From positions 1 through 64,000 of IMG/VR virus record IMGVR_UViG_3300009169_000019: DNA of 64,000 bases; one strand, 5' to 3'. The stretch is from a virus. Under the pieces are notes generated by a model. The model worked only from the letters and a program-made list of their open reading frames with translations, did not search any database and was not told where the DNA came from. A program made the position numbers and the translations under genes. Positions 25,174-43,092 of the stretch are shown here, piece by piece. Every line of letters starts with the position of its first letter. Position 1 is the first letter of the stretch.

Positions 25174-25911
25174 TTATTCTTTTATTTTAATATGATTCCA
25201 ATTTTGACCAGACTGAATAGCTTTAATTGTTCTAAGTTTTACGTTATACTTATCAGCTATAATTTGCTGTTTTACTTTATCTTTCAAAAGATATTTAATT
25301 TCTTTTACTTGTTTTTCAGTAAGTTTTGAAAATCCATTATTACTGCCTTTAGAAATAATATCTGTAACAATATTATGTTTCTTTTTTAATTGTGTAATTA
25401 CAGAGGGTGATAAATTGTGTTTTTCAGCAATTATATCTTGTCTAATCCCAGATTTTAAATCTTCTAAAATTTGCAAATTTCTTTGTTCTTTTTGTTGTCT
25501 AATAAAAGCAGTTTGTTCTCTGGTAATTTTTAATTTATCTTTATGTTTTCTTCCTACAGAATCCCAATATTTACTGTTTGAGATTTTTCTTTTTTCTATT
25601 GTTTCTTCAGATTGTTTTATTCCTAAACAATTACCTGCTACACTGCAAATATTATATTCAGGTTTTAAACTATCTAAATAAAATTGTTCTCTTTCAAGTA
25701 ATAAATTTTCATCACAATTTTCTAAAATAGAAAATTCAAAATTATCTGAACCATATTTATGAAAAGCTCTTTGTAAAGCTAATGAATGATGTACATTACA
25801 TTTTAAATCTGTTAAATGTCTTTTCCATCTTTTATTAAGTCTTATAGAACTTCCTATATAAGATTTTCCATTTATCTTATTTTTTATTTGATATATTCCT
25901 GATGTTTGCAT
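25174..25911 (-). CDS. Free-standing GIY-YIG homing endonuclease
   Basis: 245 residues from the ATG at 25911. An in-frame Met at 25959 would overlap the upstream gene, and the extra 16 residues do not fit the domain. GIYQIKNKINGKSYIGSS gives the GIY and YIG strands, with RLNKRWKRH (catalytic Arg) and LLEREQFYLDSLKPEYNI (catalytic Glu). The C-terminal half carries two helix-turn-helix-like repeats (QDIIAEKHNLSPSVITQ and QQIIADKYNVKLRTIK) that would read the target DNA. It sits between two cargo genes of the virion operon, so it is likely a mobile element using this intergenic site. A -7-like promoter element lies directly before it. Confidence 0.9.
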   Translation of the reverse strand: MQTSGIYQIKNKINGKSYIGSSIRLNKRWKRHLTDLKCNVHHSLALQRAFHKYGSDNFEFSILENCDENLLLEREQFYLDSLKPEYNICSVAGNCLGIKQSEETIEKRKISNSKYWDSVGRKHKDKLKITREQTAFIRQQKEQRNLQILEDLKSGIRQDIIAEKHNLSPSVITQLKKKHNIVTDIISKGSNNGFSKLTEKQVKEIKYLLKDKVKQQIIADKYNVKLRTIKAIQSGQNWNHIKIKE

Positions 25912-25916
25912 AACTA

Positions 25917-25924
25917 CAAATATA
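25917..25924 (-). promoter_or_regulatory. Bacteroidota -7 element of the homing endonuclease gene
   Basis: On the minus strand TATATTTG lies only 5 bases before the ATG at 25911. The -33 position 19..20 bases upstream is a weak match (TTCG/TCGG instead of TTTG). If used, transcription would start at or near the ATG and give an almost leaderless mRNA, independent of the long operon. Confidence 0.45.
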
Positions 25925-25949
25925 CAACAAAATTCTGAATGTACCGAAT

Positions 25950-28052
25950 TTAAGAACATTTTATTTGAAGAATTTTACTATTTTCCATGATTTTCAACAA
26001 GTTATCAATATCCTGTTCTTGGTATTGCGCTTTTTCATCTGTTCTACTCCACATCAATCCTTTATCGGTAGCAAACTGAGCATGTCCTTTTATAGAAGGT
26101 TTAATTAGTGGTGTAGATATTTCTTTTTCTGTATAGTTGGTACCTCCTGGAACTGTTAGGTTAGAGTAATATTGAGAAGGGTTTTGTTTAAAATTATTTA
26201 AAGCTTTTTCAAATTCTTCTTTCGAAATTAACACTTCTTGTTCTTGAATATTACTTTTATAGTATTTTATACCATTTACACCCTTTACTATCTCATAATT
26301 AGTGTCATTAAAGTTAAAAGCTGAATAATTATCTTTAAAAGGGTCTGTAGTATAAGCTGTATTAATTTCAACAGTATAACTATAATTAGCAGCAAATGAT
26401 GTTAACTTTTCTTCAATAGTATTACCTTCTGATTCTTTTAATAAATTAACTTGATCTTTAGGTATTTGAAAATCTTGTTGTATTTTATTCCAGAATGTAT
26501 TATTATTACCTATTTGTTTCCAAAGTTTATTTATTTTATCTAAATTATTATATAAGTTTGATACAACTTTAAATTGATATTGTAAATTAGATTCTTCACC
26601 TATTGATTTATTTTTAGGAAGTTGAAAATATATAAATTCATTTTTTTCTATATCTCTTTTATTAAAGTTAGAAGTTCTATAATCTTCTTGATCTTTTTCA
26701 CGTTGAAACATTCTTTCATTTACATCATTTGGTGAAAGTGTTAATTTACCAAAATATATATCTTGTACTGATGAAAAACCACCTACAGATTGTTCTTCTG
26801 ATTCTGAATTGTATATAAAAAAATCAACAGGTATATTATATTGAGCAAGATTATTTATTTCTTTTTCAGATAAATTAGAACCATCTTCTTTAGTAAAAAT
26901 AGTTTCTTTTGAAGAAATATGTTTAATATTTGCAACAACCTCACCATTAGAATTAACTAAAGTATATTCTGTTAACCAACCTTTATTATCTCTATTTAAA
27001 TTTTTAAAAGTATAACCAGAAGCAGGTATTAAATAAGCATATGTTTTATATTTTTTTTCAGAACTACCCCAACCATCATGTATTGGTACAGCATTTATAT
27101 CTTGCATATGAGAATTTATTTTCTCATATTCTGTAACGCTATCAACAGTAAAATCTAAATCATGAATAGGTGCATTAGAAGGTCTATAAATAGTTTCACC
27201 TTGACCTGCAATAGCTAAACTACCTACAAGTTTATAATTAAAATCTTTACCTGTGTATCTACTAATTATATCTTTGGCTAAATTATTTCCTGAAACAGCT
27301 TGTTCATAATTTAATTTTTCAACTTTAGAATTAGGTGAACCAATAAAATTTTGATTTTCAGTTAATATATTAAATGCAATTTTATCAGCAGCATCTTTAA
27401 AATAACTTCCTTCTTTTAATACAAATGGTTTTGTAAATTTATTTAAAAATTCAGTTACTGCTTTAAGTATTTTTAATAATAAATTTCTTTCTTCTTTTGT
27501 TTTATTTGTCCATTGTTGTAATAAAGATTCTGTAATAAGTTTACCTAATGCTTCTACTTTAACTTGTTTTTCATTATTATAAACTGGCATATACTCATCA
27601 TATACTGCCTGATATCCTGACCAATCTTTAATGTTATCCATTAAATCTCTTATTAATGGATGTGTTTGACCCATTAACATTACAGTCATATGAACAGCTT
27701 CTTCTGGTATTGTATCTAATTTTTTTTCTACAGAATGATATATAATTTTATTAAGAACATCTGTAGCACCTAATGCATCAACTCCCCATCTTTCTTTAAA
27801 GTTTTTTATTTCATTAGATTGAACACCATATCTAGAAAGAAAATTTAAAAGTTTTGCATCTAATTTTTTATCAGCTTCTTTTATTTCTTGAGATGTAAGT
27901 TGATATTGTACGTCTACTTCAATTGAAACTTCATATTCATTTTTTGGAACAACTCCTTCATACTTATCCCATAAGTAATAAGCCATATCTTCACCTCTAG
28001 AAGATACTAATGATTTCCAAGAATCTAAATTTTTATTAGGACATGTTGCCAT
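25950..28052 (-). CDS. Virion cargo protein with nucleotidyltransferase-like core
   Basis: 700 residues. The first 230 residues are a zincin-like module (ATDVLNKIIYHSVEKKLD, then IPEEAVHM with Glu/His at 117..121 and EALGKLITESLL). They are clearly related to the same module in the 1,762-aa protein. Residues 275..425 resemble a polymerase-beta-type nucleotidyltransferase: YKLVGSLAIAGQG with Gly277/Ser278, IHDLDFTVD with Asp298 and Asp300, and a later strand NIPVDFFIY with a third Asp. The rest is charged and uncharacterised. It lies between the giant RNA polymerase gene (2 bases apart) and the homing endonuclease. The substrate could be nucleic acid or protein; only the fold signature is visible. 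Confidence 0.75.
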   Translation of the reverse strand: MATCPNKNLDSWKSLVSSRGEDMAYYLWDKYEGVVPKNEYEVSIEVDVQYQLTSQEIKEADKKLDAKLLNFLSRYGVQSNEIKNFKERWGVDALGATDVLNKIIYHSVEKKLDTIPEEAVHMTVMLMGQTHPLIRDLMDNIKDWSGYQAVYDEYMPVYNNEKQVKVEALGKLITESLLQQWTNKTKEERNLLLKILKAVTEFLNKFTKPFVLKEGSYFKDAADKIAFNILTENQNFIGSPNSKVEKLNYEQAVSGNNLAKDIISRYTGKDFNYKLVGSLAIAGQGETIYRPSNAPIHDLDFTVDSVTEYEKINSHMQDINAVPIHDGWGSSEKKYKTYAYLIPASGYTFKNLNRDNKGWLTEYTLVNSNGEVVANIKHISSKETIFTKEDGSNLSEKEINNLAQYNIPVDFFIYNSESEEQSVGGFSSVQDIYFGKLTLSPNDVNERMFQREKDQEDYRTSNFNKRDIEKNEFIYFQLPKNKSIGEESNLQYQFKVVSNLYNNLDKINKLWKQIGNNNTFWNKIQQDFQIPKDQVNLLKESEGNTIEEKLTSFAANYSYTVEINTAYTTDPFKDNYSAFNFNDTNYEIVKGVNGIKYYKSNIQEQEVLISKEEFEKALNNFKQNPSQYYSNLTVPGGTNYTEKEISTPLIKPSIKGHAQFATDKGLMWSRTDEKAQYQEQDIDNLLKIMENSKILQIKCS

Positions 28053-28053
28053 A

Positions 28054-31000
28054 TTAACATATTGATTTTAAGATGTTACCAATTTGAAGAGGAGTGTATC
28101 CAATACTTTCTAATAATTTACTATTTATTTTTGAAACAGGATAAGAAACTGCGTCTTTTAATGTAATTGTTTTACCACTTACAACTTCTGCACCTTCAAC
28201 ACTAGTGGATTGTTGAGATGACAACAAACGTTGTTGAGCTAACTTCAATCCTTCTAAGAAAGCTTTATCAATTAATTCATTTGTATTATGTGTAAAGTTT
28301 TCATATTGAAGAAGTTTTTTAGCAGCTTCTGAATTAGGATTTTGAATAAAGCTTTCTACAACTAAATCTTTCATTATTTGTAAATTAGCACGTTTACCTA
28401 CCTCTGTAAGTTTAGGAGCTATTTTTACACCATATCCACCTTTTGCTACATAAGCATCGTAAGTAACTTTGTCAAACTTACCATTTTTATTTGATTGATA
28501 AGCATGTTCTACACTTCCGTATTCTCTAGTGACACCATCAATACTTTCATAACTAAACTTTCGTGGAGCTAAATTAGATAATATTCTTGTAGAAGTGGTT
28601 GATTCAGCTTGTCCCCAATATACATTAATAGTTCCTTTAGGTTGAACACTAGCGGATGGTTGGACCACTTTAGTTGCAGGAGTTATATTATAAAGATGAA
28701 CGCTACCTCCATCCATCAATGTTTTACCTGCATATTTAGCACCTTTTTCAAAATTAGCCCATGTACCAAATCCCTCAGCTTTAGCAAACTCATCTTTGGT
28801 GTAAGAAAATCCATTACCTACAACTTTATCTCCCTGAAGTTTTACAAACCCTCTGTGAGTGATATTAACTAAGTTACCTTTATCTGTAGTGTATACACCA
28901 TCTCCTTTATAGAAAGAATTATGATAACTACTGTTTCTTACAGTGGTTGTTGCTTGTCCAGTTTGTACCCAATCTTCAATAATATTTAATTTAATTTCAC
29001 CAAGGGGTTGTTGTTTTTGTATAGATGTTTGTAAAGTTGGTTGATTTAATATTGTAGCAGCAGCTTGTGGATTTAATTGTTGTAATGTTTGTATTGCCGC
29101 TTGTGTAGCTTCTTGAAGATTACGTAATGTCTCTTGTGTTACTGCTGGAACACTTGCTAAAGAACTTATTGAAGGTGTTTCTTCATATTGAGAAGGTTTT
29201 TTATATCCTTCAGGAGTAACAATATTATTCTTTTTAAGATTAGATTGTAACTGATTTTCCATTGATGTTTCGGTGTAATTTCTTCCATCACCTGAAGCAA
29301 CAATTGGTGAATAAATAGCGTATTCTCTTTCTTTAAATTTTCCTTGAATTGTTTTGTAACCAATTCTTTGATGAAGATAAGTGTCAAATGCTTTATAGAG
29401 CTTACCAAATTTCTTCAGTTTTTCAATCTGACTATCAGTTATTCCATTCTTACGTTTAGAAGTTGCAATGTATTCATAATTTGAATCAGAGTAATCTGTA
29501 TCTAATAATACATTACCTGTATACTTTTCAAACTTTTTAAATTGGGGTCTTATTACAATATTTCTATCAGATTTATTATTTTGATGAAATTGCTTCCATA
29601 CCAGATTAGGATCAATAGTAAATTCACTATTCATATATACATCTAATATACTATTAACCACTTGACTATACAAATGTGCGGGCAATATTTTAGTATAATT
29701 AATTGTACTATCTTGAAGACCTGACTGAAGAATACTAAAAATAGAAAGATTGTATACAAAGTTTTCAAGTTGTGTATTACCAGAAGCCTTTGCGTAATCT
29801 AATAAATTGTTTATAGACTCAATTAATACATCATTTTTAAATGTAGTCATTTTATTTCTAAACAGTTTAATATTATCTTGATCATCAACATTATTGGCAA
29901 ATATAGGTATTAGTTCTTTAATTGCTAAATTTTGAGATATGTTATAATCTTCAGAATTTTTAAGTAATTGTAATTGTTTAGTGATAGAATTTTCTCCCAT
30001 CATTAATTCTTTAAACTTAGCAGATATATTTGTTTCAATCTCCCCAAGTTTAAAATTTGTATTCTGAATAACATATGTAATAAAAAATCTCTGATATTTA
30101 TTTATTAATAATGACTTATCATCATTGGAAATAAACTTTTCTCTGTCTTCTAAAAACTCATACATTTTTTCAAATACAGGATATGCTCTTCTATCTAATG
30201 AAATAAACATGTTTTCAAATACGGAAAAAAGATCTTCTTTTTGTTTTTTCATTTCCCCAATAAATGTCTTATCTAAAATAGAATCCGGGTTCTTAATAAA
30301 TCCTGCTTCAAGCATTCTATTCCATCTAATAAGCTGCAATTGATTTTCAATAATAGTTTTTGTTTTTTTATTATCATATCCTATTGCACCAATAAATTCA
30401 GTAAGATAGCTTGACTGCTCAACATAATCTAAATAATCTGTTAATAACATAATCTGCATAGCTGCATCATCTTCTGTAATCTTATATTTAGGATTATTTA
30501 GATTTTTAATTGCATTCTTTAACTCATCTACTGTTGGCTTTTTATACTTGTTTTTGATTTCATTAATTCCTTGAAATAATTTTTCTTTAAGAGCTTTTAT
30601 TTCCACTCTTAAATTAATCACTTCTTGTTCATTAAGACTTTCTGTAGTATTTAATATATTTGTTTTTTCATTAATCTGATCAATAACAGAAGACATTTCA
30701 TTATTGTATATTTTCACATATTTAGAAATACTATTAATAAAAATTTGCTCTCTAAAAGTTACATTTTTATTTACTTTTCTGAAAATTGAGTTATTCATGT
30801 TTTCTGACTTCATAAAATTCTCAACAGCAGGTTGATTAAATAAATATGCAATTTCTTTCATTGGCACCCCAAGCTTTTGTAAATAGAACCAAGTGCCAGC
30901 AGTATTAAAATTAATATTTAAAGAAAATACAAAAGGATCTTTAGCAGCATCTACAAATCCAGAAAGTGCTTCAGATATATTTTCAGAAATCCATCTACCT

Positions 31001-34000
31001 TCAGCATCTGTTTTAGCATTTATGTAAAACTCACCTAATTTAGACTCGTTATGAGAAAGATTAATACTTATTGCTTTTACATATTTTCCATCTTCTGTTT
31101 TAAATTCGGGATCATATTTAACTAAGAATTTCATTTTTGAAACTTCATACTTACCAGATAATACAATATCTGAAATTTGTGACATAATGTGACTTGTAGA
31201 TTGCAATGCTGCAATACCAACAAGACGCTTACCAGTTAAATATCTTTCACGTGTTTCAGCTGATTGAATAAATTTACGAAGAGCAAGCATAGAATTTTCA
31301 GCATCTTTCTTTCCTTTAAGATCATTAATTTCATTAGCTAATGATTTAAGAGTGGCTGTACTATTAGGCATTATAAGCTGACGATAGTTTTCTGGCATGG
31401 AAATTAATTCTTCCATAGTTTCTCTTAATTCATTTTGAAGAGATTCCATACTATCTTGTCCGATTTCTACATATTCAATACTTTCAATAATGGGTGTAAA
31501 TGCTTTATTATTAATCCTATTATTCTTAATAACATCTTTACGATATTTATTATACTTTATTAACGCATCTTTAAATGTAGTGTAAAAAATATAATCTTCA
31601 CCAGTGATGTTTTGCGCAACTAAATAATCTTCAAGATCTCCAAATTTACCCAATCCGCTTCCAGCTGAAAATTGATTTAAATCTTCAACCATGTCTTTAA
31701 ATTCTTCTTCCGTAAGATTTTTAATTTTATTTTTTACAGTTTTTGGAAGATCTTTATAATAGTCAGTTGATTTAAAATCATTTATTGTTTCCTTAGTGAA
31801 TCTAGTATATTTTAATTTATAATTAGGAATATACAAATTCATTTTATCAATATCAAAGTCAGATCCTGCCTTACCTACTATTTCAGTAGGCACTACAATC
31901 ATATCTCCACTTTCTCTTGGTAAAAATCCTTTTACTACTATATTTTCAATAGAGTTCATACCTTGTGTTGGAATACGAAAACCAATCATATTAAGAAGTC
32001 TCTTATCCATGTTTGCTGGTATTTGATAAACCCCATTTACAAGTTTCATTCCAAAATCTTCAGGTTCAACATTTTCAAAATACCAGGGAATATAAATTTC
32101 CATTTTGGAAATCTTTCCATCTTTTAATTCATAGAATTTTAAATCAGATGATGTAGGAATAAGAGATTTAGTTTCATCTTCTGTTAACTGATCATCGGGT
32201 TTCATCTCAGTATATACACCGTCTTTTAAATACATCATGGTTCTGTTGGTAGAATTGTATCCCGTAAATGCAACCTGTACAGCAGGTTTACCAAACATTT
32301 TAGCAGATATAACTCTGCTATCCATTATAGAGTTTAATATATTATCTATTTTATCTCTATTAGCTAATGTATCAAATCTATATAACAATCCTTTAGTGTT
32401 AGGATTTACATCAAGTGCATCAACTAAATTAGAGGGAAGATCTCGTTTAGTTAATTCTTTACGTAAAAGATTAATCATGTTAGTGTAATCATTTACGGTG
32501 TAACTACCATCTTTTTCTTTTGTTATTCCTAATTCAACTAAAAGTTGTTCTTTACCTTTTTTAACTATATTTTCAATAAGTCTATTATAATTTGTAATTA
32601 ATACTTCTGCTCGATCATTAATATATTTACCATTCACTTTAAAATTAGACATGATAAGTTTTGTAAGCTGAGTACCTCTAACTACTTTGTTTTTATAAAC
32701 AGCAGGTTGTTCAGATTGAATACCGTAAAATTTAGTATATAGTGATTGAACTGGTAATCCAGAAGGTAATTGCCATTGTTTATTTTTTAATTCAATATTA
32801 ACTGCACCATCATTTTTAATTATAGAAACAAACTCACCAGTTTTAGGATTAAGCATTGCCCCCACTTTTTCACCAGATTCAAATCCAATAACATCTATTT
32901 GATTATTTTGTGCAGCTAAATATAACTTTTCATATTCAGTGCCCTCAACACTTCTGTAAAATTTAGGTTGTACCGAGTGTTTTAAAAATACAGTGTGCAT
33001 CATTGATGTGTTCACTGCATATCCAAAGTATTGAGGTTTAATTACAGGAAGAGGCACGTTAGGATTGCCTTTTTTAAGAATTCCTTCTGCCCATTTAACT
33101 GCGTATTTTCCTTTGTTATATGTTTTATATGCAGGATCTGTTTTAGATTTATTAGATCTTGCAACAACTTCATATGCAATTTCATAATCTATTTGATCTA
33201 ATTGTTTTTGAGAAAGCTTACCACTTAAAAATAACATGTCCCTATACATATCACTCATAATCCAACCTTGACCATCTGCCTCATTTAATTCTACATATGC
33301 TTTAATTTCTCCTGTAAATTTACCATCTTTAAGAATAAAGTTCTTAAATGTACCATCTTCATTAAAATTTGCACCCACTCTATTTTGTGCTTCTGTTAAA
33401 GATATACCATCTAAAAGAATCGACTTATATAAATTTTCAGCTATCTGCTTGTAAAAATTAGATACGGCAGTTACATCTTTAAATGATATATTTTTAAATG
33501 TTTGAATCTTTTCAGAAGCTCTTATTTTTTCATCAAATCTAGGAATTAAACTATCCATTTTAGATATAATGTGAGGATTGTCTACTATCGCATCTTTGGA
33601 CGAATTGATACCATTAGCACGTTTTGCCAAGTCTTTATAAAGAGCAGGGTGTCCATATAACAATTTATGTTGTTCTGTAACTGCAAGTTCTTTATTTATT
33701 GTAATATATTTTACAAGTTTTTCTAATTGATTTCTTGTTATGTTACTACTATCAATTTGAAAATAATCATTAAGCACTTGAGTATTAATAGCATCCGTTG
33801 TAAATTGATCTTCTGTAATCTGATTTATAATTCCAAGTTCTATCAATGCATCAATTGTAAAGTTTACAGTTTCTTTAAGATCGTTTTTAATAAGTTCTTT
33901 GATGACATTATCTGCTAAAAATTCTTCTTTAGTTATTTTACCAGCAAGTAAGTTTTCAAATCTAACCTGTAATCCTGATTTTCTTTCACCTGATTTTTTA

Positions 34001-37000
34001 AGTTCCTTTTCTGTTTTAAATTTAAGAACATCTTTAAAGTGACCAAGATATTTTACATTATCACTATAATATTGAATATTCGATTTTAAAGCTTTTTCTA
34101 CTATTGCGGCATCAATTTCATCCTCTAAATGTTGTAAATAAATATCCAACACCTTATTAAAGTTAGGATTGTCAATATCATATTCAGCTATTCTTGCACT
34201 AATAAAAGGTTTAGAAAATGTTAATCCAAATTCTGAACTCTTATCTGAATTAATAATTGTAAAATAAATTGGTTTCAATCCTTCTTTATCTGCATTTATT
34301 ATATAATTAATTTCTTGCATTATCCTGTCAGGATATGTAAGATTAGCTGTATCAACACCATTTGTATCCATTGAAGTTACACCAGAAATAAGGGTGTAAT
34401 CAATGTTATTTTTTTTATTACCATTTTCATCAAATATTAATCCTCCTGGTTTTAACAATTGTGAATTAGTTTGATACGCAAATACATTCACAACTTGTTC
34501 TCCATTTTCATCATATCCCGCTGTACCAAATTGAGGATTCGATGCTACAAAATCAGCAAGTGTTTTAGATTCATTTAATGAAGAAAGAACATAGTTTATG
34601 CTAGCAGGCAATGTAATAGAATATTGAGTTTCTCCAGAAGCTGTTGTATGAGTTAAGACTGAGCTATCGTATCTCATTATTTTCTCAATATCAATTAGCT
34701 TTTTCATATTACCAGACTCAGGTCCAATATTAGAATATAAATCTGCAATATTGATTATGCTATTTTCTTCATTACTAATAATTGAATTTTTAATTTTTAT
34801 AAAAGAACTAATAACATCAGATCTTTTGTTTATTATATTCAAAGGAATATCAGAAATAGTTTTGTTTTCTTTATATTCAACTCCAGTAAATGCTACACCC
34901 ATATCTTTTAAATACAGTAATGCTGTTTGAATAGATATGTTTTTATCATTATTATTTTTTAATTTTAAAAACTCTCTGTATTGAACGCTTTTTTTATCAA
35001 ATACAATATTACCTGTATCATCAATTCCTAAAAGCTGATTATTATTTTCTTCTTTATCAGTTACAAGCTTAAGATTTCTTGGAAGTTCTCCCTGCCATTC
35101 TTCACGAATTCTATCTTCATTTGTGCTCTCTAAAGCATTCATTAAATAAATTGAAGAATCTTCGTTGATGATAAGTTTTGAAGGTGTATTTTTTTTATTC
35201 ATTAAGCTTTTTTCAAAGCCAATCAACAATTTTAAATCATCAATGTTTATATTTTCCTTTGTAAAATAATTAATTGCTTCACCTGAGTATTTTAATCTTT
35301 TTTTCAATTTGTTAATCCATACAAAATTAGGTTTGTATTGATTAACTTTTTTATCGAAATACTTTTCATCAAGTTTTTTAAACATTGCTTTTAAAGCATC
35401 AACAAACAACACTTCTCCGTTTTGATCAACTTCTAATTTAGAATATGTACCATTCAATTCATTTAAAAGTAAATTTAATGTTGCATCATAATCAACAAGT
35501 TCAGGTAAATTTAACGAATTTTTCTTAGTGTATATTTGATTTGTTTTAGAATCATATATATCTTTAGTTAAACTACCAATGAGAATTTTAAATGACGTAG
35601 CAGTTAATCTTCTAGGATCTATATAGATTGTGTCTCTAATACCAGAAGTATCAACTACATCTAATTCATTAGGAGCACTATCTTCTTCAGCACCATCTTT
35701 TACTTCTGCAAATTGTAATCCATACTTTTGTAATGATTGCTTTAATATATTATATACAATTGTTGAATTTTGAAATGCATTTTCAATCATTGACGCATAT
35801 CTATTCTTTTCACTAAACTTGTTGTATGCAATATTTTTTATTTCATTGTTTTCTTCTACTGTTAAATTTCTACCGATTTGTTTTTGATAATTAATAAAAG
35901 TTGGTGCAAAATAATTTGTAAAAAATATGGATCCCTGTCCAAACAATTGTTCATAAATATTAGACATACTTGTTTCAAAAAGCTTTCTTAATATTTTATT
36001 ATTGTTTTCATCTTCTGTAAGAAGAGATTCAATATTTAAAGAAATAAAGTTTCCTTTATTATCTGTAAATAAATTAGGATTATGAAGATTCTGAAAGAAA
36101 TATGAACTTAACCCATCAATAAATTGTGTAGTAAATTCTTGTGTTGTATTTGGTACCACCTCTCTATATGATGTACCCATTTCAGAAATATCCCTAGCAA
36201 ATCTTACATTGGAATAATTACCTGCATTAATTTTATTAAAGAGTTTATTAATGGCGGATTCACCTTCAGATTTTTCTTTTTTAGAAAGACCTACATATTT
36301 TTTTATTGTGCTCCAAAGATCTTTAAAGAACTGTTTAATTTTTCCAAAAAATCCTTTTTCTTCAGTGGATATTTGTTCTTGTTCAGAAAGAATATAATTT
36401 CTAAATTCTTCAGCAAGCATTTCTCTAACATCATAGTGTGATGCTTCAGAATAATTTTTTGTTTCTTTTGAGAAAGGATTAGTAAAACTTCCTTCTCTAT
36501 TTCTAAATTCTTCAACAAATTCATTCTGTTCTTGTACAGTTAGATAGGCATTCCAAACGGCTTCAAATGCTTCATGAAAACCGGTTCCTATTTCTGCATT
36601 TTCATATATATAAACAATACTATTTTTAAAAGCACCCCAAGCTTTTCCATCAATTAATTCTGCAACTTTAACAACTTTAATATTTGGAAGTTTTGATTTA
36701 AACCATTCTTCTACTTTTTTAAAATCTTCAGTTTGTATTACAGATTGCTCAAGTTGTAATCTATATGCTTCATTGGGTTTAACACCACCTAATCCAGCAC
36801 TAAGAATATTTACACCACCACTTTGATTAAATGCTTTTAATGCTTCTTCTTTTTCTGATTCAGAAAGAGGTTTTGGTTGTTCGGGAGAAACAGGTTCTAC
36901 AAAAATACCCTGAGCTTGTATTTGTTCTAATCTTTTACCAATTGAAATAGGTTCAGTTTCAGCATTAATATTTTTACTGACTTGTTCAGCTACTGGTTGT

Positions 37001-40000
37001 GATTCGGTTTTAAAACTAAATGTAGGAATTTGTCCAGGAATTAATGTTATAGATTCTGGATTTGTATTTTGTTTAATTTCGGGTTGTGCTGTTTCTTTTT
37101 CAATAGACGACACATCAGTAGCTGTTCCAAATTTAAATATTGGAATTTGACCAGAAACTAATTGAATTGCGGCACCACCAACTCCAGGTATTGTTACAGC
37201 AGATTGATTTTTATAATTAATAATAGGTTTAAAATCATCATCAACATTTCTATATGTAAGATTTGAACTTTTAACTTGAGGAGTGTTCACATCTGTTTCA
37301 CTATACAATGGTGTATTGGTGTATACTACAGGAGTAGATGTTTTAAATAAATATTCTGTGTAATTTGAATATTCCGCGTCTATAATTACATTATTATCTT
37401 TATCTACTACCGGAACATAGAATGGAATATTTGTTTTTGTTAATAAAGAGTTATTAACCTGATGTCTTAATTCAGAAACAATATCTTCTTTATTTTCTTC
37501 AATGATAGATGGGTTTAAATCATACGGAGTTCTACCTCTATATAACATTCCAGTTTGATTAATGTAGAACTTATTTTCCGATTCAATAACATTATCATCA
37601 GTTGCCCAAAATACCAATCCTTTAAAATATGATAAAATTAAATTTTTGTTTGCTTCTTCATCGGTAGTTAATTTTTCAACTTTTTCTTTCTGATAAATTT
37701 TTGCATAATATTTAAGCAGACTAATAAAGTTATCTTTTTCTTCTTGGGTTAGCTGTCTATTAAACAATCTAAAAATCTGACCATCATCTCTTTTCATATA
37801 AAGACGACCGGGCTTAATACCATCAGATTTATCTGTAGCAACTTTTAGTTTAATACCTTGACCATTTGGATGTCTTAAATTAGCAAAGTCAGTTGTATTT
37901 TCTTCAATAACTCTACCTTGTAATTCAAGTTCTTGAGGTAATCCATTTTCTCCCATTGGAAGCATCACTTGCTGACCTACAGTTTTTCCAGTGATAGGAA
38001 TATACATATCAGCATTTTCAGAAACAGTAGCTCTGATATTTTTTACAAAATCTCTATATTTAAAGATCATGTTGGTTATCTGCTCTTTTGTAACACCTTT
38101 TGTAGTAAATCTTTCTTCCACCCATTCTACCGCACTGCTTATATCACCAAATAATTGTTCTTGATTCATCCTCAAACTTGTATAAACAATATTATCAGAT
38201 GTAGGATTATCTATTTTGTTTCCAACTATATCAACCGGAAAATAATTTTCACCTTCTTTTCTAACTACAACAACTTTAATATCATTTTCATCAATAGTAA
38301 TATTATAAGGATCATTAGCTCTTGTTACAGGCATTAAAAAATATTCACCACCTTCTACGTTTACATTATCAGTAAATTTAAAAAATCTAGCATTACCGCT
38401 TTCTTGATTTATTTCTGTATCATTTTTATCTATATAATGTCTTCCAGTAGTAAGATATAAACCTGTTAAACCAATAAGAGGTCTTTTAAATTCATCTTCG
38501 CTTACAAATAAATCATCACCATTAACAACTTCTACAATATTTGCATCAGGATTTAATTTTGCGTTTTTAGCTCTTTCAGCAGTTGTGGTTTCAAATTGAA
38601 TTCTTCTTCTTTCTTTTATATAACCAACTTCTTCAAATAATTCATTTTGAATATATTTTAAAAAGTCAACTCTTTCTTGAAGTGTAGATAGTTCTCCAAG
38701 TTGTGCCGATGCTTGTTGAAGTCTTTGTAGTTTTGGATAGAGCTCATTATTAATTTTATCAAATGCATTTTTTGCATTTTTAAAAGCACCACTTAAATTA
38801 AATACTACTTGACTATATAAATTATTTTGAACAATCCCCTTTCGTAAAAATTTTAAAAATTCTATTTTATCTGCATCTTGACTATTATCTTCTATTTCTT
38901 TCAAATATTTTGTAAGCCATGCTTTGCTATTATCACTATTAAGTATATCAATTACATCAATATATTTACTTAATTTTTTCCAAATTTCTTTTGCTCTTTC
39001 AGAAAATTCTTTAAACTTTTCAATTAATTCTTTAAGTTCTTCAATTTCAAACTCCGTATCTTCTACAAGTTTATCTACCTGTTCTTTGCTATATCTTTTT
39101 GTTATTAATTCTTTTCTATAATCTTCAAGTTTAGATTCAGCTTCACCATAAATTGTACCAGTTTCATCTGTTTGAAAAACTTCTTTAGTTTTTTCAATTT
39201 CATCTAATGCATTATAATAGTTATTTCTTGCTTCAACAAGAGATTCATTTAATGTATTTAAATCTTCTAATTCTTCATTTAAATTAACAATGGTAGATTC
39301 AATAGATTGAATAGCATTTGGAAAACTATTAATCTTTTCTTTCATTTTAATATACTCAGCCTTCTTTCTACCTGTTTTCGAAGGAGGATTTTTTTCTATA
39401 TAATCTTGCGCACTAGCAAGTTCTTCCTGAAATAATTCTAATTCAGCTTGTAAATCCTGAAGTCTTTTACTGTTGCTTTCTTTTTTAGCTTTTGTTTCTT
39501 CAAGCTTTTCTTCAACACGATTAATTAAATTAACTAATGCTGATTGTTGATCTTCTAAATCTTGAACATTTTGTTTTTCTGCTTCTTGTAAAAGAATTTC
39601 TTTATTTATAGAATCAATAATTAATCCAAATCCAGAAGGCTGTCTTTTAAGAGCATATTTCTCATAATACTTTAAATTGAAAGGTACTTTAATAACTTTC
39701 ATTTTACTCTTAGAATTAGGGTTTTTATACTGCATGTAGAGTTTAAAAACTCCATCTTCAGTGTATTCACCAACAAGAGCAGCATCAACACTTACACTTG
39801 TATCTGTATAATCATTTTCGTCAAGTCTATGAGGCTTACTATATTTCTTATTAATTTTAATTCTAAACTGCTTATCTCTATTTACATAGAAAAACCTTTC
39901 AAATAAATCAAGATTTTTAAAATTTTTAAGAAGACCAAACTCATTAGCAAATTCTTCTGCTGTTTTAGTTTCCAGAGTTGGTTGATAGTTTAATTGATAT

Positions 40001-43000
40001 GTAATATTATCACCTTCAATAGAAACTATTTTAATAATATTTTTTGTATACTTTGATTTTTTTAATTTCTTATCTTCTGTAAGATAAAAGTTATTTTCTA
40101 CAATTTGAATACTGCCAGGCTCACCATTAATGTCTACTACATCAATTGTAATTCTATTTGCATTCTCATCATAGATTTCATCTAATTGTTCTGCAATAGA
40201 ATTTGCCTCTTCTATTGTTTCAAATTTATCAACATACGTACCTTTTGGAGAAAAAAGCACATATTTATTTTTAAGTCTTAATACAAAGTGTTTATTATTT
40301 TTTGGATTTTTTTCAATATAATCCTTACCTGCATCCTCATACATTTTAGTGTCACCCATCATTTCCATAATTTCACCAAGATGGGCTTGATGCAATCCTT
40401 CAAAGCCTGCTGGATTAGCAATAGTATTAAAATAACTTACAGCATCTTCAAAGTCTGTTTGTAAACGAAGATAGTCAAATATGTCCCCTACAGCATTATT
40501 AATAACATCTGTAGTGGTAATTACACTAACATCCGGGTTATCAAGTTTTAATATTTCAGATATTGCTTGTGAATTTTCTTTTAGAAACTCTGCTTTAATT
40601 TTTTTAATTTCATCAACGTTATCTCCAGCTTCTTCAATTTGTGCAGAATATTTTTCAACACTTTCTTTATATTTATTAAATAAATCGAGTTTTTGTTTTT
40701 TCTCCTCTTTTAATTTTGGATCAGATGTTGCTTCAAACTCTTTTTGTAAAAGTTCTAATTCTTTCTTAAGAGTAATGGAAGGAGAAGTTAAAGAATATAA
40801 AGAATTAAAATTTAAATTAGGAAAATTATTTTTAATATTAGTAAGAATTTCTTTTTGTCTTTTAGCAACATCTAAATAAGTAGATTTAGAAAAAGCCATT
40901 TGATTAATTGCTTCTTCTGCTGCCATATAGTTTGCAACTTCTGCATTATATTCAGGAGTACCCACCTTATAATTTTTTGGATTATAGGGGTTTCCATAAT
41001 TATCTCTTATTTTTTCATAAGTGTCTTTTACTTCTTTTACTTTTGATTCAAATGTACTAACCAACCCAGTCATTACATTTTTAGATTGTTCTTCTGATAA
41101 TCCATCATAAAGCGAACCTGCATATGCTTGTTTAAATTCATCTGGATTAAGATCACTGATAGATTCTTTCATTCTATCAATAATAACATCCTCCATTCCA
41201 GACTTTACAATGTTTAATACATATTTATTAATAAAGTCATTTTTACTATCCCAATATTCTTTTTTTCTACCTTCTTTTCCATTTAATCTCATAGAACTAT
41301 CAAGCTCAACAAGAGATCTGTAAAAATCAGTTTTATTGTTAGTGGATTGATTTAATAAAGCAACAAGTTTATTTCTTTCTTCATTTGCTCTTTGTACACT
41401 AGATTTATATCCATCTGTATTAACTGTTTTATCATATAAGCTTTTTGCACCTTTTATACCACCACCTAATACATTTAAAATACCACCAGTTAAAAAACCA
41501 CTCATGAATGTTTTTAAACCATCCATGGTAAGTTGTTCTTTAGCACCGGCATATAGAAAATCATTAATTCCTTTTTGATTTAATCTTTGCTGTTCTGTAC
41601 CATAATTATATAAATACCATTGTTTAGTAGCACTATCAATAACATCTTGTCCAGTTTCTTGTAAACCCTCAACTACATTTGTTTTAGCATATTCTAATGG
41701 AAACTTAATAAGTGTTTTAAATGGAGAAGTTTTTAATTGATGTGTAAAGGCAGCAACTCCTTTCTTTGCAACAAATAAATCACCACCTTCTTTAATTGTT
41801 TTCTTAGTGTTAGTGAATATACCTTTTGCTACTAAATCATCATCTAAAAATCTAGTTCCTTTAAAAGTTCTCAATATACCATCAAATGCAATCTTATCTG
41901 TTAAGGCAATCCATGCTGCCTGAACTGCACCTTCTGTTTGAACTGTTTCAAAAGCTTTCTGTTTAAGTTTAGTTTTTAATTCTTCACTGGGTTCAAAACC
42001 ATTTATATTTTTATATTCTTCAATGGCAGTTTCATATGCTTCATTCATGACAGGTGCTACAGTAGCTTTTGCTTCTGTAATGCCTGCGTTAAGCATTCTA
42101 AGATCTCTATAGAATGCTCCAAAACCACGAGCTGTAGTTCTTAAAGCACCAACACCTTGACCAAATGCTCTTTGATCAATTCTTGCAACTTTAGAAAAAT
42201 CTGTTATATACTCAGCAGTATTCTGTAAAGGATTAACAAATTTAGTCACTGAGTTGTTAAATATTTTTCTTAATACATTTGTAGACTGTAAAGACTTTTC
42301 AAGATTTCTAGTATTATTAATTACTTTTCCTAACTTAGATGCAAGTTGAATACTTCTTGCTGCTTGAATTTCAGATGCACCACCAAAAGTAGCAGCAGTT
42401 AGCGCACTTAATGCAAATTCTTCTGCTGCTATTTCTAATACAGCTCCTATTGCATATCCACTTTGTTGTATCATATTGCTAAAGTTAGATACATTCCAAA
42501 ATGTATTTCTATCTTCTTGTGTTTGAAAAATATGATATTTATTATTGAAATCATTTTGCCAACTGTTAATAGCTTCAAGTTCACTTTGTTTAAATGGACT
42601 ATCACCTTTAAAAATATCCACGGTGTCACCCCACGAAAGAAACTGATCTTTCATCTGACTGAGTGCTAATGAACCAGAACCCATTATAGCATTAGATAGT
42701 TTATTCCAATTTGTTTGTGCACTACCGTAGGTTTCTTCAATATCCATTCCAGGAATAACACCAATATCTTGAAAATAATCAGATTGTAAAGCAGATTGAA
42801 ATCCTGGAACAGCAGGTGCTTCAAATCTTTGTGCTTGTATAAATGGATCTTGTTGTAACTTTTGTTTTCCAAGTGCCATACCGCGATCTATATCGGCATC
42901 TGATAATCCTATCAATTTATATTGCGGTTGACTTGTAGAAGTTAATTTATCAAATGTTAATTTATCAAAATTTAATTCTTTAAAGGGATTTTCTGGAACA

Positions 43001-43092
43001 AAAGTTTCAAGTGTTCTAATGTTTTGAACTTCAGGAACTATTGGTGTTACCTGTTCTTCACCTATGGTTAAATTTTTTAAATTACTTTCCAT
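28054..43092 (-). CDS. Giant virion RNA polymerase with C-terminal ASCH-like and NADAR domains
   Basis: 5,012 residues, at the extreme end for phage proteins. Residues 1..600 are helical with hydrophobic Ala/Gly-rich stretches (EIAAEEFALSALTAATFGG). Coiled coil at about 1170..1315. A zincin-like module near 2100..2270 has FHEAFEAVW in place of HExxH. The RNA polymerase part includes RIPTQGMNSIENIVVKGFLP and the metal-binding GSDFDIDKMNLY with DFDID at 3745..3749, the hallmark of the crAss-like polymerase known from phi14:2 gp66. The C-terminus has an ASCH-like domain (about 4703..4803; TTVR, DEFAKAEGFGTWANFEK, VHLYNI) and a NADAR/YbiA-like domain (about 4819..4956; LSNLAPRKF, YGSVEHAYQSNKNG, FIQNPNSEAAKKLL). 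Family knowledge says this polymerase is packed in the virion and transcribes early genes. The extra domains suggest nucleotide or ADP-ribose chemistry. Confidence 0.92.
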   Translation of the reverse strand: MESNLKNLTIGEEQVTPIVPEVQNIRTLETFVPENPFKELNFDKLTFDKLTSTSQPQYKLIGLSDADIDRGMALGKQKLQQDPFIQAQRFEAPAVPGFQSALQSDYFQDIGVIPGMDIEETYGSAQTNWNKLSNAIMGSGSLALSQMKDQFLSWGDTVDIFKGDSPFKQSELEAINSWQNDFNNKYHIFQTQEDRNTFWNVSNFSNMIQQSGYAIGAVLEIAAEEFALSALTAATFGGASEIQAARSIQLASKLGKVINNTRNLEKSLQSTNVLRKIFNNSVTKFVNPLQNTAEYITDFSKVARIDQRAFGQGVGALRTTARGFGAFYRDLRMLNAGITEAKATVAPVMNEAYETAIEEYKNINGFEPSEELKTKLKQKAFETVQTEGAVQAAWIALTDKIAFDGILRTFKGTRFLDDDLVAKGIFTNTKKTIKEGGDLFVAKKGVAAFTHQLKTSPFKTLIKFPLEYAKTNVVEGLQETGQDVIDSATKQWYLYNYGTEQQRLNQKGINDFLYAGAKEQLTMDGLKTFMSGFLTGGILNVLGGGIKGAKSLYDKTVNTDGYKSSVQRANEERNKLVALLNQSTNNKTDFYRSLVELDSSMRLNGKEGRKKEYWDSKNDFINKYVLNIVKSGMEDVIIDRMKESISDLNPDEFKQAYAGSLYDGLSEEQSKNVMTGLVSTFESKVKEVKDTYEKIRDNYGNPYNPKNYKVGTPEYNAEVANYMAAEEAINQMAFSKSTYLDVAKRQKEILTNIKNNFPNLNFNSLYSLTSPSITLKKELELLQKEFEATSDPKLKEEKKQKLDLFNKYKESVEKYSAQIEEAGDNVDEIKKIKAEFLKENSQAISEILKLDNPDVSVITTTDVINNAVGDIFDYLRLQTDFEDAVSYFNTIANPAGFEGLHQAHLGEIMEMMGDTKMYEDAGKDYIEKNPKNNKHFVLRLKNKYVLFSPKGTYVDKFETIEEANSIAEQLDEIYDENANRITIDVVDINGEPGSIQIVENNFYLTEDKKLKKSKYTKNIIKIVSIEGDNITYQLNYQPTLETKTAEEFANEFGLLKNFKNLDLFERFFYVNRDKQFRIKINKKYSKPHRLDENDYTDTSVSVDAALVGEYTEDGVFKLYMQYKNPNSKSKMKVIKVPFNLKYYEKYALKRQPSGFGLIIDSINKEILLQEAEKQNVQDLEDQQSALVNLINRVEEKLEETKAKKESNSKRLQDLQAELELFQEELASAQDYIEKNPPSKTGRKKAEYIKMKEKINSFPNAIQSIESTIVNLNEELEDLNTLNESLVEARNNYYNALDEIEKTKEVFQTDETGTIYGEAESKLEDYRKELITKRYSKEQVDKLVEDTEFEIEELKELIEKFKEFSERAKEIWKKLSKYIDVIDILNSDNSKAWLTKYLKEIEDNSQDADKIEFLKFLRKGIVQNNLYSQVVFNLSGAFKNAKNAFDKINNELYPKLQRLQQASAQLGELSTLQERVDFLKYIQNELFEEVGYIKERRRIQFETTTAERAKNAKLNPDANIVEVVNGDDLFVSEDEFKRPLIGLTGLYLTTGRHYIDKNDTEINQESGNARFFKFTDNVNVEGGEYFLMPVTRANDPYNITIDENDIKVVVVRKEGENYFPVDIVGNKIDNPTSDNIVYTSLRMNQEQLFGDISSAVEWVEERFTTKGVTKEQITNMIFKYRDFVKNIRATVSENADMYIPITGKTVGQQVMLPMGENGLPQELELQGRVIEENTTDFANLRHPNGQGIKLKVATDKSDGIKPGRLYMKRDDGQIFRLFNRQLTQEEKDNFISLLKYYAKIYQKEKVEKLTTDEEANKNLILSYFKGLVFWATDDNVIESENKFYINQTGMLYRGRTPYDLNPSIIEENKEDIVSELRHQVNNSLLTKTNIPFYVPVVDKDNNVIIDAEYSNYTEYLFKTSTPVVYTNTPLYSETDVNTPQVKSSNLTYRNVDDDFKPIINYKNQSAVTIPGVGGAAIQLVSGQIPIFKFGTATDVSSIEKETAQPEIKQNTNPESITLIPGQIPTFSFKTESQPVAEQVSKNINAETEPISIGKRLEQIQAQGIFVEPVSPEQPKPLSESEKEEALKAFNQSGGVNILSAGLGGVKPNEAYRLQLEQSVIQTEDFKKVEEWFKSKLPNIKVVKVAELIDGKAWGAFKNSIVYIYENAEIGTGFHEAFEAVWNAYLTVQEQNEFVEEFRNREGSFTNPFSKETKNYSEASHYDVREMLAEEFRNYILSEQEQISTEEKGFFGKIKQFFKDLWSTIKKYVGLSKKEKSEGESAINKLFNKINAGNYSNVRFARDISEMGTSYREVVPNTTQEFTTQFIDGLSSYFFQNLHNPNLFTDNKGNFISLNIESLLTEDENNNKILRKLFETSMSNIYEQLFGQGSIFFTNYFAPTFINYQKQIGRNLTVEENNEIKNIAYNKFSEKNRYASMIENAFQNSTIVYNILKQSLQKYGLQFAEVKDGAEEDSAPNELDVVDTSGIRDTIYIDPRRLTATSFKILIGSLTKDIYDSKTNQIYTKKNSLNLPELVDYDATLNLLLNELNGTYSKLEVDQNGEVLFVDALKAMFKKLDEKYFDKKVNQYKPNFVWINKLKKRLKYSGEAINYFTKENINIDDLKLLIGFEKSLMNKKNTPSKLIINEDSSIYLMNALESTNEDRIREEWQGELPRNLKLVTDKEENNNQLLGIDDTGNIVFDKKSVQYREFLKLKNNNDKNISIQTALLYLKDMGVAFTGVEYKENKTISDIPLNIINKRSDVISSFIKIKNSIISNEENSIINIADLYSNIGPESGNMKKLIDIEKIMRYDSSVLTHTTASGETQYSITLPASINYVLSSLNESKTLADFVASNPQFGTAGYDENGEQVVNVFAYQTNSQLLKPGGLIFDENGNKKNNIDYTLISGVTSMDTNGVDTANLTYPDRIMQEINYIINADKEGLKPIYFTIINSDKSSEFGLTFSKPFISARIAEYDIDNPNFNKVLDIYLQHLEDEIDAAIVEKALKSNIQYYSDNVKYLGHFKDVLKFKTEKELKKSGERKSGLQVRFENLLAGKITKEEFLADNVIKELIKNDLKETVNFTIDALIELGIINQITEDQFTTDAINTQVLNDYFQIDSSNITRNQLEKLVKYITINKELAVTEQHKLLYGHPALYKDLAKRANGINSSKDAIVDNPHIISKMDSLIPRFDEKIRASEKIQTFKNISFKDVTAVSNFYKQIAENLYKSILLDGISLTEAQNRVGANFNEDGTFKNFILKDGKFTGEIKAYVELNEADGQGWIMSDMYRDMLFLSGKLSQKQLDQIDYEIAYEVVARSNKSKTDPAYKTYNKGKYAVKWAEGILKKGNPNVPLPVIKPQYFGYAVNTSMMHTVFLKHSVQPKFYRSVEGTEYEKLYLAAQNNQIDVIGFESGEKVGAMLNPKTGEFVSIIKNDGAVNIELKNKQWQLPSGLPVQSLYTKFYGIQSEQPAVYKNKVVRGTQLTKLIMSNFKVNGKYINDRAEVLITNYNRLIENIVKKGKEQLLVELGITKEKDGSYTVNDYTNMINLLRKELTKRDLPSNLVDALDVNPNTKGLLYRFDTLANRDKIDNILNSIMDSRVISAKMFGKPAVQVAFTGYNSTNRTMMYLKDGVYTEMKPDDQLTEDETKSLIPTSSDLKFYELKDGKISKMEIYIPWYFENVEPEDFGMKLVNGVYQIPANMDKRLLNMIGFRIPTQGMNSIENIVVKGFLPRESGDMIVVPTEIVGKAGSDFDIDKMNLYIPNYKLKYTRFTKETINDFKSTDYYKDLPKTVKNKIKNLTEEEFKDMVEDLNQFSAGSGLGKFGDLEDYLVAQNITGEDYIFYTTFKDALIKYNKYRKDVIKNNRINNKAFTPIIESIEYVEIGQDSMESLQNELRETMEELISMPENYRQLIMPNSTATLKSLANEINDLKGKKDAENSMLALRKFIQSAETRERYLTGKRLVGIAALQSTSHIMSQISDIVLSGKYEVSKMKFLVKYDPEFKTEDGKYVKAISINLSHNESKLGEFYINAKTDAEGRWISENISEALSGFVDAAKDPFVFSLNINFNTAGTWFYLQKLGVPMKEIAYLFNQPAVENFMKSENMNNSIFRKVNKNVTFREQIFINSISKYVKIYNNEMSSVIDQINEKTNILNTTESLNEQEVINLRVEIKALKEKLFQGINEIKNKYKKPTVDELKNAIKNLNNPKYKITEDDAAMQIMLLTDYLDYVEQSSYLTEFIGAIGYDNKKTKTIIENQLQLIRWNRMLEAGFIKNPDSILDKTFIGEMKKQKEDLFSVFENMFISLDRRAYPVFEKMYEFLEDREKFISNDDKSLLINKYQRFFITYVIQNTNFKLGEIETNISAKFKELMMGENSITKQLQLLKNSEDYNISQNLAIKELIPIFANNVDDQDNIKLFRNKMTTFKNDVLIESINNLLDYAKASGNTQLENFVYNLSIFSILQSGLQDSTINYTKILPAHLYSQVVNSILDVYMNSEFTIDPNLVWKQFHQNNKSDRNIVIRPQFKKFEKYTGNVLLDTDYSDSNYEYIATSKRKNGITDSQIEKLKKFGKLYKAFDTYLHQRIGYKTIQGKFKEREYAIYSPIVASGDGRNYTETSMENQLQSNLKKNNIVTPEGYKKPSQYEETPSISSLASVPAVTQETLRNLQEATQAAIQTLQQLNPQAAATILNQPTLQTSIQKQQPLGEIKLNIIEDWVQTGQATTTVRNSSYHNSFYKGDGVYTTDKGNLVNITHRGFVKLQGDKVVGNGFSYTKDEFAKAEGFGTWANFEKGAKYAGKTLMDGGSVHLYNITPATKVVQPSASVQPKGTINVYWGQAESTTSTRILSNLAPRKFSYESIDGVTREYGSVEHAYQSNKNGKFDKVTYDAYVAKGGYGVKIAPKLTEVGKRANLQIMKDLVVESFIQNPNSEAAKKLLQYENFTHNTNELIDKAFLEGLKLAQQRLLSSQQSTSVEGAEVVSGKTITLKDAVSYPVSKINSKLLESIGYTPLQIGNILKSIC

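What the first reader, a model, noticed from the sequence alone, without database searches (positions are those of the whole stretch)
28214..28990. ASCH-like plus NADAR domains fused to a virion RNA polymerase
The last about 310 residues of the giant polymerase contain an ASCH-like domain (TTVR, DEFAKAEGFGTW, VHLYNI) and then a NADAR/YbiA-like domain (YGSVEHAYQSNKNG, FIQNPNSEAAKKLL). NADAR enzymes cleave N-glycosidic bonds of ADP-ribose adducts, and some remove ADP-ribose from DNA guanine added by DarT1-type toxins. If this protein is injected with the genome, the phage would deliver an anti-ADP-ribosylation activity before any gene is expressed. I do not know of this fusion being described.
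Basis: partly seen in the sequence, partly recalled or inferred. Interest (0 to 1): 0.85.

Follow-up and report, generated by a model that had tools for sequence, protein, structure and literature searches.

The report
Swappable NADAR enzyme on phage polymerase
A crAss-like phage carries, on the tail of the giant polymerase that related phages inject into bacteria, a small ADP-ribose-removing enzyme domain that distant phages trade as a cassette, so the phage may arrive already armed against a bacterial defence.

Summary
The C-terminus of the 5012-aa crAss-like RNA polymerase (28054-43092, minus strand) contains a NADAR domain at aa 4820-4964. AlphaFold2 gives pLDDT 96, its only convincing PDB matches are YbiA and NADAR:ADP-ribose, and Glu4862, Lys4869 and His4935 sit in the family's conserved positions. 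The 'ASCH-like' half is not supported beyond a short motif.

The domain is a mobile module. It is 57-91% identical in 17 other environmental phage sequences whose polymerases can be only ~23% identical. It sits after the polymerase core, before it, or in the adjoining protein. A phage 99% identical to the window through the polymerase has this exact tail segment replaced by an unrelated SLOG-like domain. It belongs to the phage, His-type (T4 gp30.3-like) NADARs, which hydrolyse guanosine-ADP-ribose in vitro but did not rescue cells from DarT1. The DarT1 reading is therefore possible, not favoured.

I found no paper describing the combination, although three named Crassvirales genomes carry a NADAR in this polymerase chain (one auto-annotated DUF1768).

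Found on the way: these nearly Cys-free cargo proteins carry a single Cys at their abutting ends (80 of 88; neighbour 75 of 80) but none when fused, suggesting they are joined through cysteine.

The parts
28054..43092 (-). Giant crAss-like RNA polymerase polyprotein, 5012 aa, that carries the module
   Evidence: ORF and translation; DFDID motif shared with relatives; phi14:2 and crAss001 RNAPs carry the same motif
31846..31860 (-). DFDID catalytic metal-binding motif of the RNAP, aa 3745-3749
28201..28635 (-). NADAR domain, aa 4820-4964 (mobile module)
28507..28509 (-). Glu4862, invariant in 61 NADARs (E88 of E. coli C7 NADAR)
   Evidence: role from PMC11543638
28486..28488 (-). Lys4869, invariant in 61 NADARs (K95 of E. 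coli C7 NADAR)
   Evidence: role from PMC11543638
28288..28290 (-). His4935, the phage-type residue in place of YbiA Glu / DarT1-NADAR Asp
   Evidence: PMC11125620
28654..28992 (-).
   Evidence: only relative L030; no ASCH profile hit
28174..29009 (-). Exchanged tail segment: replaced by a SLOG-like domain in the near-identical phage L002
   Evidence: DNA identity 99.1% up to 29010, none here, 92% again from 28173; L002 tail
28057..28173 (-). Conserved C-terminal cap ...LESIGYTPLQIGNILKSIC with the protein's only Cys as last residue
   Evidence: shared with L002 and L033 whose preceding domains differ; Cys count
25950..28052 (-). Next cargo protein, 700 aa, only two Cys, near its ends (MATC..., ...IKCS)
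25174..25959 (-). GIY-YIG endonuclease ORF lying where the next cargo gene is split
   Evidence: Pfam GIY-YIG 1.9e-11; single 2307-aa gene in L002
19884..25172 (-). Third cargo protein, 1762 aa, single Cys at residue 3 (MACK...), PD-(D/E)XK nuclease domain

Best explanation
The phage's virion RNA polymerase is a packaged, injected multi-domain chain, and its C-terminal end holds an exchangeable slot for accessory domains. In this phage the slot holds a His-type (T4 gp30.3-like) NADAR. It enters the host as part of the polymerase. There it most likely hydrolyses N-glycosidic ADP-ribosyl adducts, best guess guanosine-linked ADP-ribose on the incoming DNA or first transcripts next to the polymerase, blunting an ADP-ribose-based host defence before phage genes are expressed. 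Shown here by sequence: NADAR family and fold, conserved catalytic positions, fusion to the RNAP chain in many phages, transfer between distant phages, cassette exchange in a near-identical phage. Inferred: packaging and injection (from homologues), enzymatic activity (from T4 gp30.3 and YbiA), the substrate, and the counter-defence role.
For: Family and fold. Context: of the 22 loci found with this module, nearly all carry it in an ORF with the DFDxD RNAP motif or in the adjoining giant ORF, after the motif, before it or next door. A second NADAR lineage also sits in giant ORFs with the same C-terminal signature. Named Crassvirales cr126_1, cr130_1 and cr131_1 carry a NADAR in the RNAP chain. 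Mobility: NADAR is 91% aa identical to L009 (DNA match limited to aa 4817-4954 within the RNAP gene) while the RNAPs are 23% identical; L024/L025 with nearly 40% identical RNAPs have only 64-65% identical NADARs. Exchange: L002. Constraint: dN/dS 0.08-0.13 between the closest copies. Other tails in the same slot include a divergent NADAR plus DUF7831 (L033), DprA-like SLOG (L054) and Pif1/Dda-type helicase (L040, L041, L043); cpYpsA SLOG directly precedes NADAR in L016. Delivery: homologous proteins are virion components. Activity: phage-type NADAR of T4 is active on G-ADPr DNA and RNA.
Against: No activity or virion data for this phage. The module lacks the D..(Y/F)WG segment (D130 and W133 in the P. 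nicotianae enzyme contact the ADPr pyrophosphate), so the substrate may differ. Only 4 of 80 RNAP loci sampled without regard to NADAR carry one within about 9 kb (one of them, L033, is in the search profile), so it is accessory, not essential. T4 gp30.3 did not protect cells from DarT1. Iyer et al. argue that phage NADARs prefer soluble ADPr derivatives.
Confidence: 0.6

Rival explanations
1. The injected NADAR mainly destroys soluble ADP-ribose signals or toxins (cyclic ADPr variants made by TIR or related defence enzymes), not adducts on nucleic acids.
For: Published contextual argument for phage NADAR, Macro and SLOG domains (PMC9503650). The same slot carries SLOG-type domains in other phages. 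The D..WG segment of nucleic-acid-active NADARs is missing from the module.
Against: Every NADAR assayed in the papers read hydrolyses guanosine-ADPr on DNA or RNA, the phage His-type of T4 included; activity on cyclic ADPr is a prediction.
Confidence: 0.28
2. One reading: the domain removes ADP-ribose put on DNA guanine by DarT1-type toxins.
For: NADAR fold and catalytic Glu and Lys; DarT1 is guanine-specific and its antitoxin is a NADAR (PMC11543638).
Against: The residue matching Asp171 of the DarT1-linked NADARs is His here. T4 His-type NADAR and YbiA fail to rescue DarT1 toxicity in cells. No evidence that the unknown host has DarT1.
Confidence: 0.15
3. The domain acts on the polymerase or host transcription machinery itself, for example by undoing ADP-ribosylation of the injected RNAP or of RNA, as a regulatory part of early transcription.
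For: Physical fusion to an RNAP; RNA guanosine-ADPr is a NADAR substrate.
Against: The module is sporadic, positionally free and replaceable by unrelated domains, unlike a core polymerase function.
Confidence: 0.07
4. The domain is a non-enzymatic ADP-ribose binder or filler that helps packaging.
For: Trp and Asp of the pyrophosphate site are absent; position is a tolerant slot.
Against: Glu and Lys invariant and His nearly so across 61 sequences; strong purifying selection.
Confidence: 0.1

Closest known systems
Phage NADAR / T4 gp30.3 (PF08010, phrog_1017)
   Same: NADAR fold, invariant Glu and Lys, His in place of YbiA Glu; 10 of 18 modules also hit PF08010 weakly
   Different: Those characterised are small stand-alone early proteins; here a domain of a 5012-aa virion polymerase, without the D..WG segment
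YbiA (E. coli) and DarT1-associated NADARs
   Same: Fold (2B3W, 8BAU), Glu and Lys of the active site
   Different: Glu or Asp as third catalytic residue; cellular enzyme or antitoxin
Polyvalent proteins of phages and conjugative elements (Iyer 2017)
   Same: Very large packaged multi-domain proteins with exchangeable effector domains
   Different: Built on a crAss-like RNAP; no PolyVal hallmark domain found by Pfam in the window protein; the 2017 paper mentions neither crAss nor NADAR
crAss-like virion RNAP (phi14:2 gp66, crAss001 gp47/gp49/gp50)
   Same: Same DFDxD motif, same type of downstream cargo protein, same terminal-Cys pattern
   Different: No NADAR was detected in the phi14:2 or crAss001 chain (not hit by the tblastn searches); their RNAPs are shorter
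Polymorphic toxin systems
   Same: Conserved carrier, exchangeable C-terminal domain
   Different: Carrier is a phage RNAP delivered by the virion, the domain looks protective, and a common C-terminal cap follows the cassette

Membership tests
NADAR superfamily | YbiA/NADAR fold | tested here: met
   AF2 pLDDT 96.1, Foldseek 2B3W prob 0.99 (TM 0.57), 8BAU prob 0.90 (TM 0.54), no other match above 0.12
NADAR superfamily | Sequence profile homology | tested here: met
   hhalign 99.9% to phage NADARs, 96.4% to YbiA set; phrog_1017 18 of 18; Pfam alone below its cut-off
NADAR superfamily | Conserved Glu and Lys of the active site | tested here: met
   E43 and K50 invariant in 61 sequences
NADAR superfamily | D..WG pyrophosphate-contact segment (D130, W133 in P. 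nicotianae) | tested here: not met
   absent from all 18 modules; D and W both invariant in the YbiA set, Trp nearly invariant in the phage NADARs of A7; the published subfamily definitions rest on the Glu/Asp/His position, not on this segment
Phage (gp30.3-type) NADAR | His in the last strand instead of Glu or Asp | tested here: met
   H116 invariant in the module, over 90% in the 61-sequence set
NADAR superfamily | Hydrolysis of guanosine-ADP-ribose | not testable with these tools
   needs enzyme assay
DarT1 antitoxin NADAR (BC4488 type) | Asp at the third catalytic position and operon with DarT | tested here: not met
   His there; the module is fused in an RNAP gene, with no neighbouring DarT recognised among the adjacent genes scanned
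ASCH domain (PF04266) | Profile match | tested here: not met
   no hit for aa 4701-4813; only a sister module in L006 reaches E 0.025
ASCH domain (PF04266) | ASCH fold | not tested
crAss-like virion RNAP | DFDxD motif in a giant late-region protein of a crAss-like phage | tested here: met
   crAss ring proteins in the window
crAss-like virion RNAP | Present in virions | not testable with these tools
   inferred from phi14:2 and crAss001 mass spectrometry
Polyvalent proteins | Hallmark PolyVal domains | tested here: not met
   Pfam found none in the RNAP polyprotein

The most novel reading that the evidence does not exclude
The crAss-like virion RNA polymerase is an injected train. Separate giant cargo proteins are coupled end to end by cysteine pairs (predicted inter-chain disulfides, opened in the reducing host cytoplasm), and exchangeable counter-defence domains such as NADAR ride just inside the couplings and move between distant phages as cassettes.
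Probability: 0.45. Interest if true: 0.9.

Novelty: new variant of a known kind. Interest (0 to 1): 0.74.

Why it matters
CrAss-like phages are the most abundant viruses of the human gut and are common elsewhere, yet how they survive host defences in the first minutes is poorly understood. A polymerase that brings its own ADP-ribose hydrolase would act before any phage gene is read, and the exchange slot gives a place to look for further injected counter-defences. If the terminal cysteines couple the cargo, that would explain how several giant proteins are packaged in register and threaded out in order. That is directly testable on cultured crAss001 or phi14:2 with a non-reducing gel.

Tried and rejected
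Pfam alone (sub-threshold), PDB sequence search with the 18-sequence profile (no hit) and a first AlphaFold2 run on 18 close homologues (pLDDT 77, no PDB match) did not settle NADAR. A 61-sequence alignment spanning phage and cellular NADARs did.

tblastn of the whole tail in annotated phages found nothing. A search of 84,980 prokaryote genomes with the module profile found no relative, so no recent bacterial donor was identified.

ASCH: Pfam, PHROGs, PDB sequence search, two viral scans and profile comparison left it unsupported. The separate 'TTR...EGW' module of related phages (L001, L006, L043, L076, L120) looks like ASCH but is not demonstrably homologous to the window's domain.

Chance was rejected: the module is 57-91% conserved in 18 sequences with dN/dS down to 0.08. 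An assembly chimera was rejected: the same fusion recurs in many independent contigs and in named genomes.

Full report
WHAT IS THERE. The window is part of a 72,359-bp virus record. It is a crAss-like phage: Pfam finds CrAss_Ring_1 and CrAss_Ring_2. ORF 28054-43092 (-) encodes 5012 aa, with the RNAP motif KAGSDFDIDK at aa 3741.

IS IT NADAR? Pfam's NADAR model gives only E 0.012 (16 bits, cut-off 35) for the window, although all 18 homologues hit it. phrog_1017 hits all 18 (best 4e-9), and E. coli YbiA hits the same family at 1e-38, so phrog_1017 is the YbiA/NADAR family. Profile comparison links the module to phage NADARs (99.9%, 1.5e-34), those to YbiA (99.4%, 1e-21), and the module directly to YbiA (96.4%, 1.3e-9). 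With a 61-sequence alignment AlphaFold2 gives pLDDT 96.1 and pTM 0.91. Foldseek returns exactly two convincing solved structures, YbiA 2B3W (prob 0.99) and NADAR:ADP-ribose 8BAU (0.90). The TM-scores, 0.57 and 0.54, show a divergent member.

ACTIVE SITE. N21, E43, Q47 and K50 of the domain are invariant in all 61 sequences and H116 nearly so. In window numbering the three catalytic positions are Glu4862, Lys4869 and His4935. E43 and K50 correspond to E88 and K95 of E. coli C7 NADAR, both needed for DarT1 rescue; K95 and the E88Q change also matter for hydrolysis in vitro (PMC11543638). His is the mark of phage NADARs (PMC11125620). The D..WG segment that contacts the pyrophosphate in the P. 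nicotianae enzyme is missing. The module is thus a His-type, derived NADAR, probably active, substrate uncertain.

IS THE OTHER DOMAIN ASCH? Not shown. Aa 4701-4813 match no family and have a single relative, at the same place in the RNAP of L030. There it is followed by a different domain.

MOBILITY. A profile scan of IMG/VR found 22 loci with the module. In nearly all it lies in an ORF carrying the DFDxD motif, C-terminal (window, L008-L012, L014, L015, L019) or N-terminal to it (L016-L018, L022-L026, L029), or in the neighbouring giant ORF (L013, L020/L021, L027). NADAR and polymerase histories disagree. Window and L009 share 91% of NADAR residues and about 87-90% of its DNA, with the DNA match inside the RNAP gene limited to aa 4817-4954, but their polymerases are about 23% identical. 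L024/L025 have polymerases nearly 40% identical to the window's but NADARs only 64-65% identical. dN/dS between the closest copies is 0.08-0.13.

CASSETTE EXCHANGE. L002 comes from an almost identical phage: 99.1% DNA identity over 7.1 kb of the polymerase, ending at 29010. From there to 28173 no similarity is detected; L002 has a SLOG-like domain (weak DprA-like and phrog_289 matches) instead of the window's two domains. Identity returns (92%) for the last 39 residues. L033 (polymerase 63% identical) has a divergent NADAR plus DUF7831 before the same cap. Other tails in the slot are DprA-like SLOG (L054), Pif1/Dda-type helicases (L040, L041, L043) and DUF7831 (L010). cpYpsA SLOG precedes NADAR in L016. 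NADAR is a minority choice: 4 of 80 RNAP loci sampled without regard to it.

OTHER CRASSVIRALES. A second NADAR lineage with the full canonical C-terminus also lies in giant cargo ORFs. Named genomes carry a NADAR in the RNAP chain: cr126_1 (2402-aa 'DUF1768' protein with DFDID), cr130_1 (5801-aa protein annotated 'DprA-like') and cr131_1.

MECHANISM. Proteins of this kind are virion proteins in phi14:2 and crAss001 by mass spectrometry, and PMC7886860 states that the phi14:2 RNAP is translocated into the cell with the DNA. By homology the NADAR would enter with it. T4 gp30.3, of the same His type, hydrolyses guanosine-ADPr on DNA and RNA. Whether the target is base-linked or soluble ADP-ribose is open; tethering to the polymerase favours the former, alternation with SLOG domains the latter (both inference).

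THE CYSTEINE ENDS. While comparing tails I saw that these proteins are almost free of Cys, yet 80 of 88 RNAP ORFs carry a Cys within the last seven residues (77 within six). The remaining eight are six fusions with the downstream cargo protein (five with no Cys at all), one contig end and one frame break. The downstream protein has a Cys in its first eight residues in 75 of 80 loci, usually its only one. phi14:2 shows the pattern exactly: gp078 Cys1797 only; gp077 Cys3 and Cys2179 only; gp076 Cys3 only. crAss001: gp47 Cys2339 only; gp50 Cys5, 1334, 2404; gp49 Cys5 only. In the window the gene that is single in L002 (2307 aa, one Cys, N-terminal) is split by a GIY-YIG endonuclease ORF, and both new ends bear a Cys (...IKCS / MACK...). 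In gut Suoliviridae (cr130_1, cr131_1) the terminal Cys are kept but internal Cys are commoner. Loci are not all independent, so the binomial odds overstate the significance, but chance is excluded. I infer end-to-end coupling, most simply by disulfides. No paper found mentions it; the crAss001 structure paper never uses the word cysteine and discusses disulfides only for the tail hub.

NOVELTY. NADAR and virion-packaged phage NADARs are known (PMC9503650), and so are packaged multi-domain effectors (PMC5512222). New in the library searched are the NADAR as an exchangeable module of the crAss-like virion RNAP, its transfer between distant phages, and the conserved C-terminal cap with its cysteine.

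Noticed in passing
28057-28059 and the ends of the neighbouring cargo proteins (25950-28052, 19884-25172); L008-L112; L113 (crAss001), L114/L115 (phi14:2): Single cysteines sit at abutting ends of the otherwise nearly Cys-free virion RNAP cargo proteins in most crAss-like phages, and are absent when the proteins are fused; suggests Cys-Cys coupling of the injected chain.
   Followed up: partly
25174-25959: GIY-YIG endonuclease ORF inserted where the next cargo gene, single in L002, is split in two; the split ends carry Cys.
   Followed up: partly
L223 5779-6574 (cr131_1): RNAP gene interrupted inside the DFDID motif by a 242-aa ORF, as in an intron; here the broken ends carry no Cys, unlike true protein splits.
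   Followed up: no
L006:8232-8582, L006:7040-7381, L043:12277-12594, L001:795-1112, L120:1882-2199, L076:2451-2768: A second mobile module (TTR...EGW, about 106 aa, weak ASCH match in one copy) recurs in divergent RNAP chains; in L006 it is inserted inside the NADAR domain itself.
   Followed up: partly
L040:11800-13629, L041:11800-14520, L043:11800-14622: RNAP C-terminal tails carrying a whole Pif1/Dda-like helicase (AAA_30, E about 1e-20).
   Followed up: no
L030 aa 2150-2290 and L044 C-terminus: Unnamed small tail domain (GSVKSSTDNYKKLYDQYG... / KTIAFVSVNGNNRASEKAIDN...) in the same slot, no Pfam match in L030.
   Followed up: no
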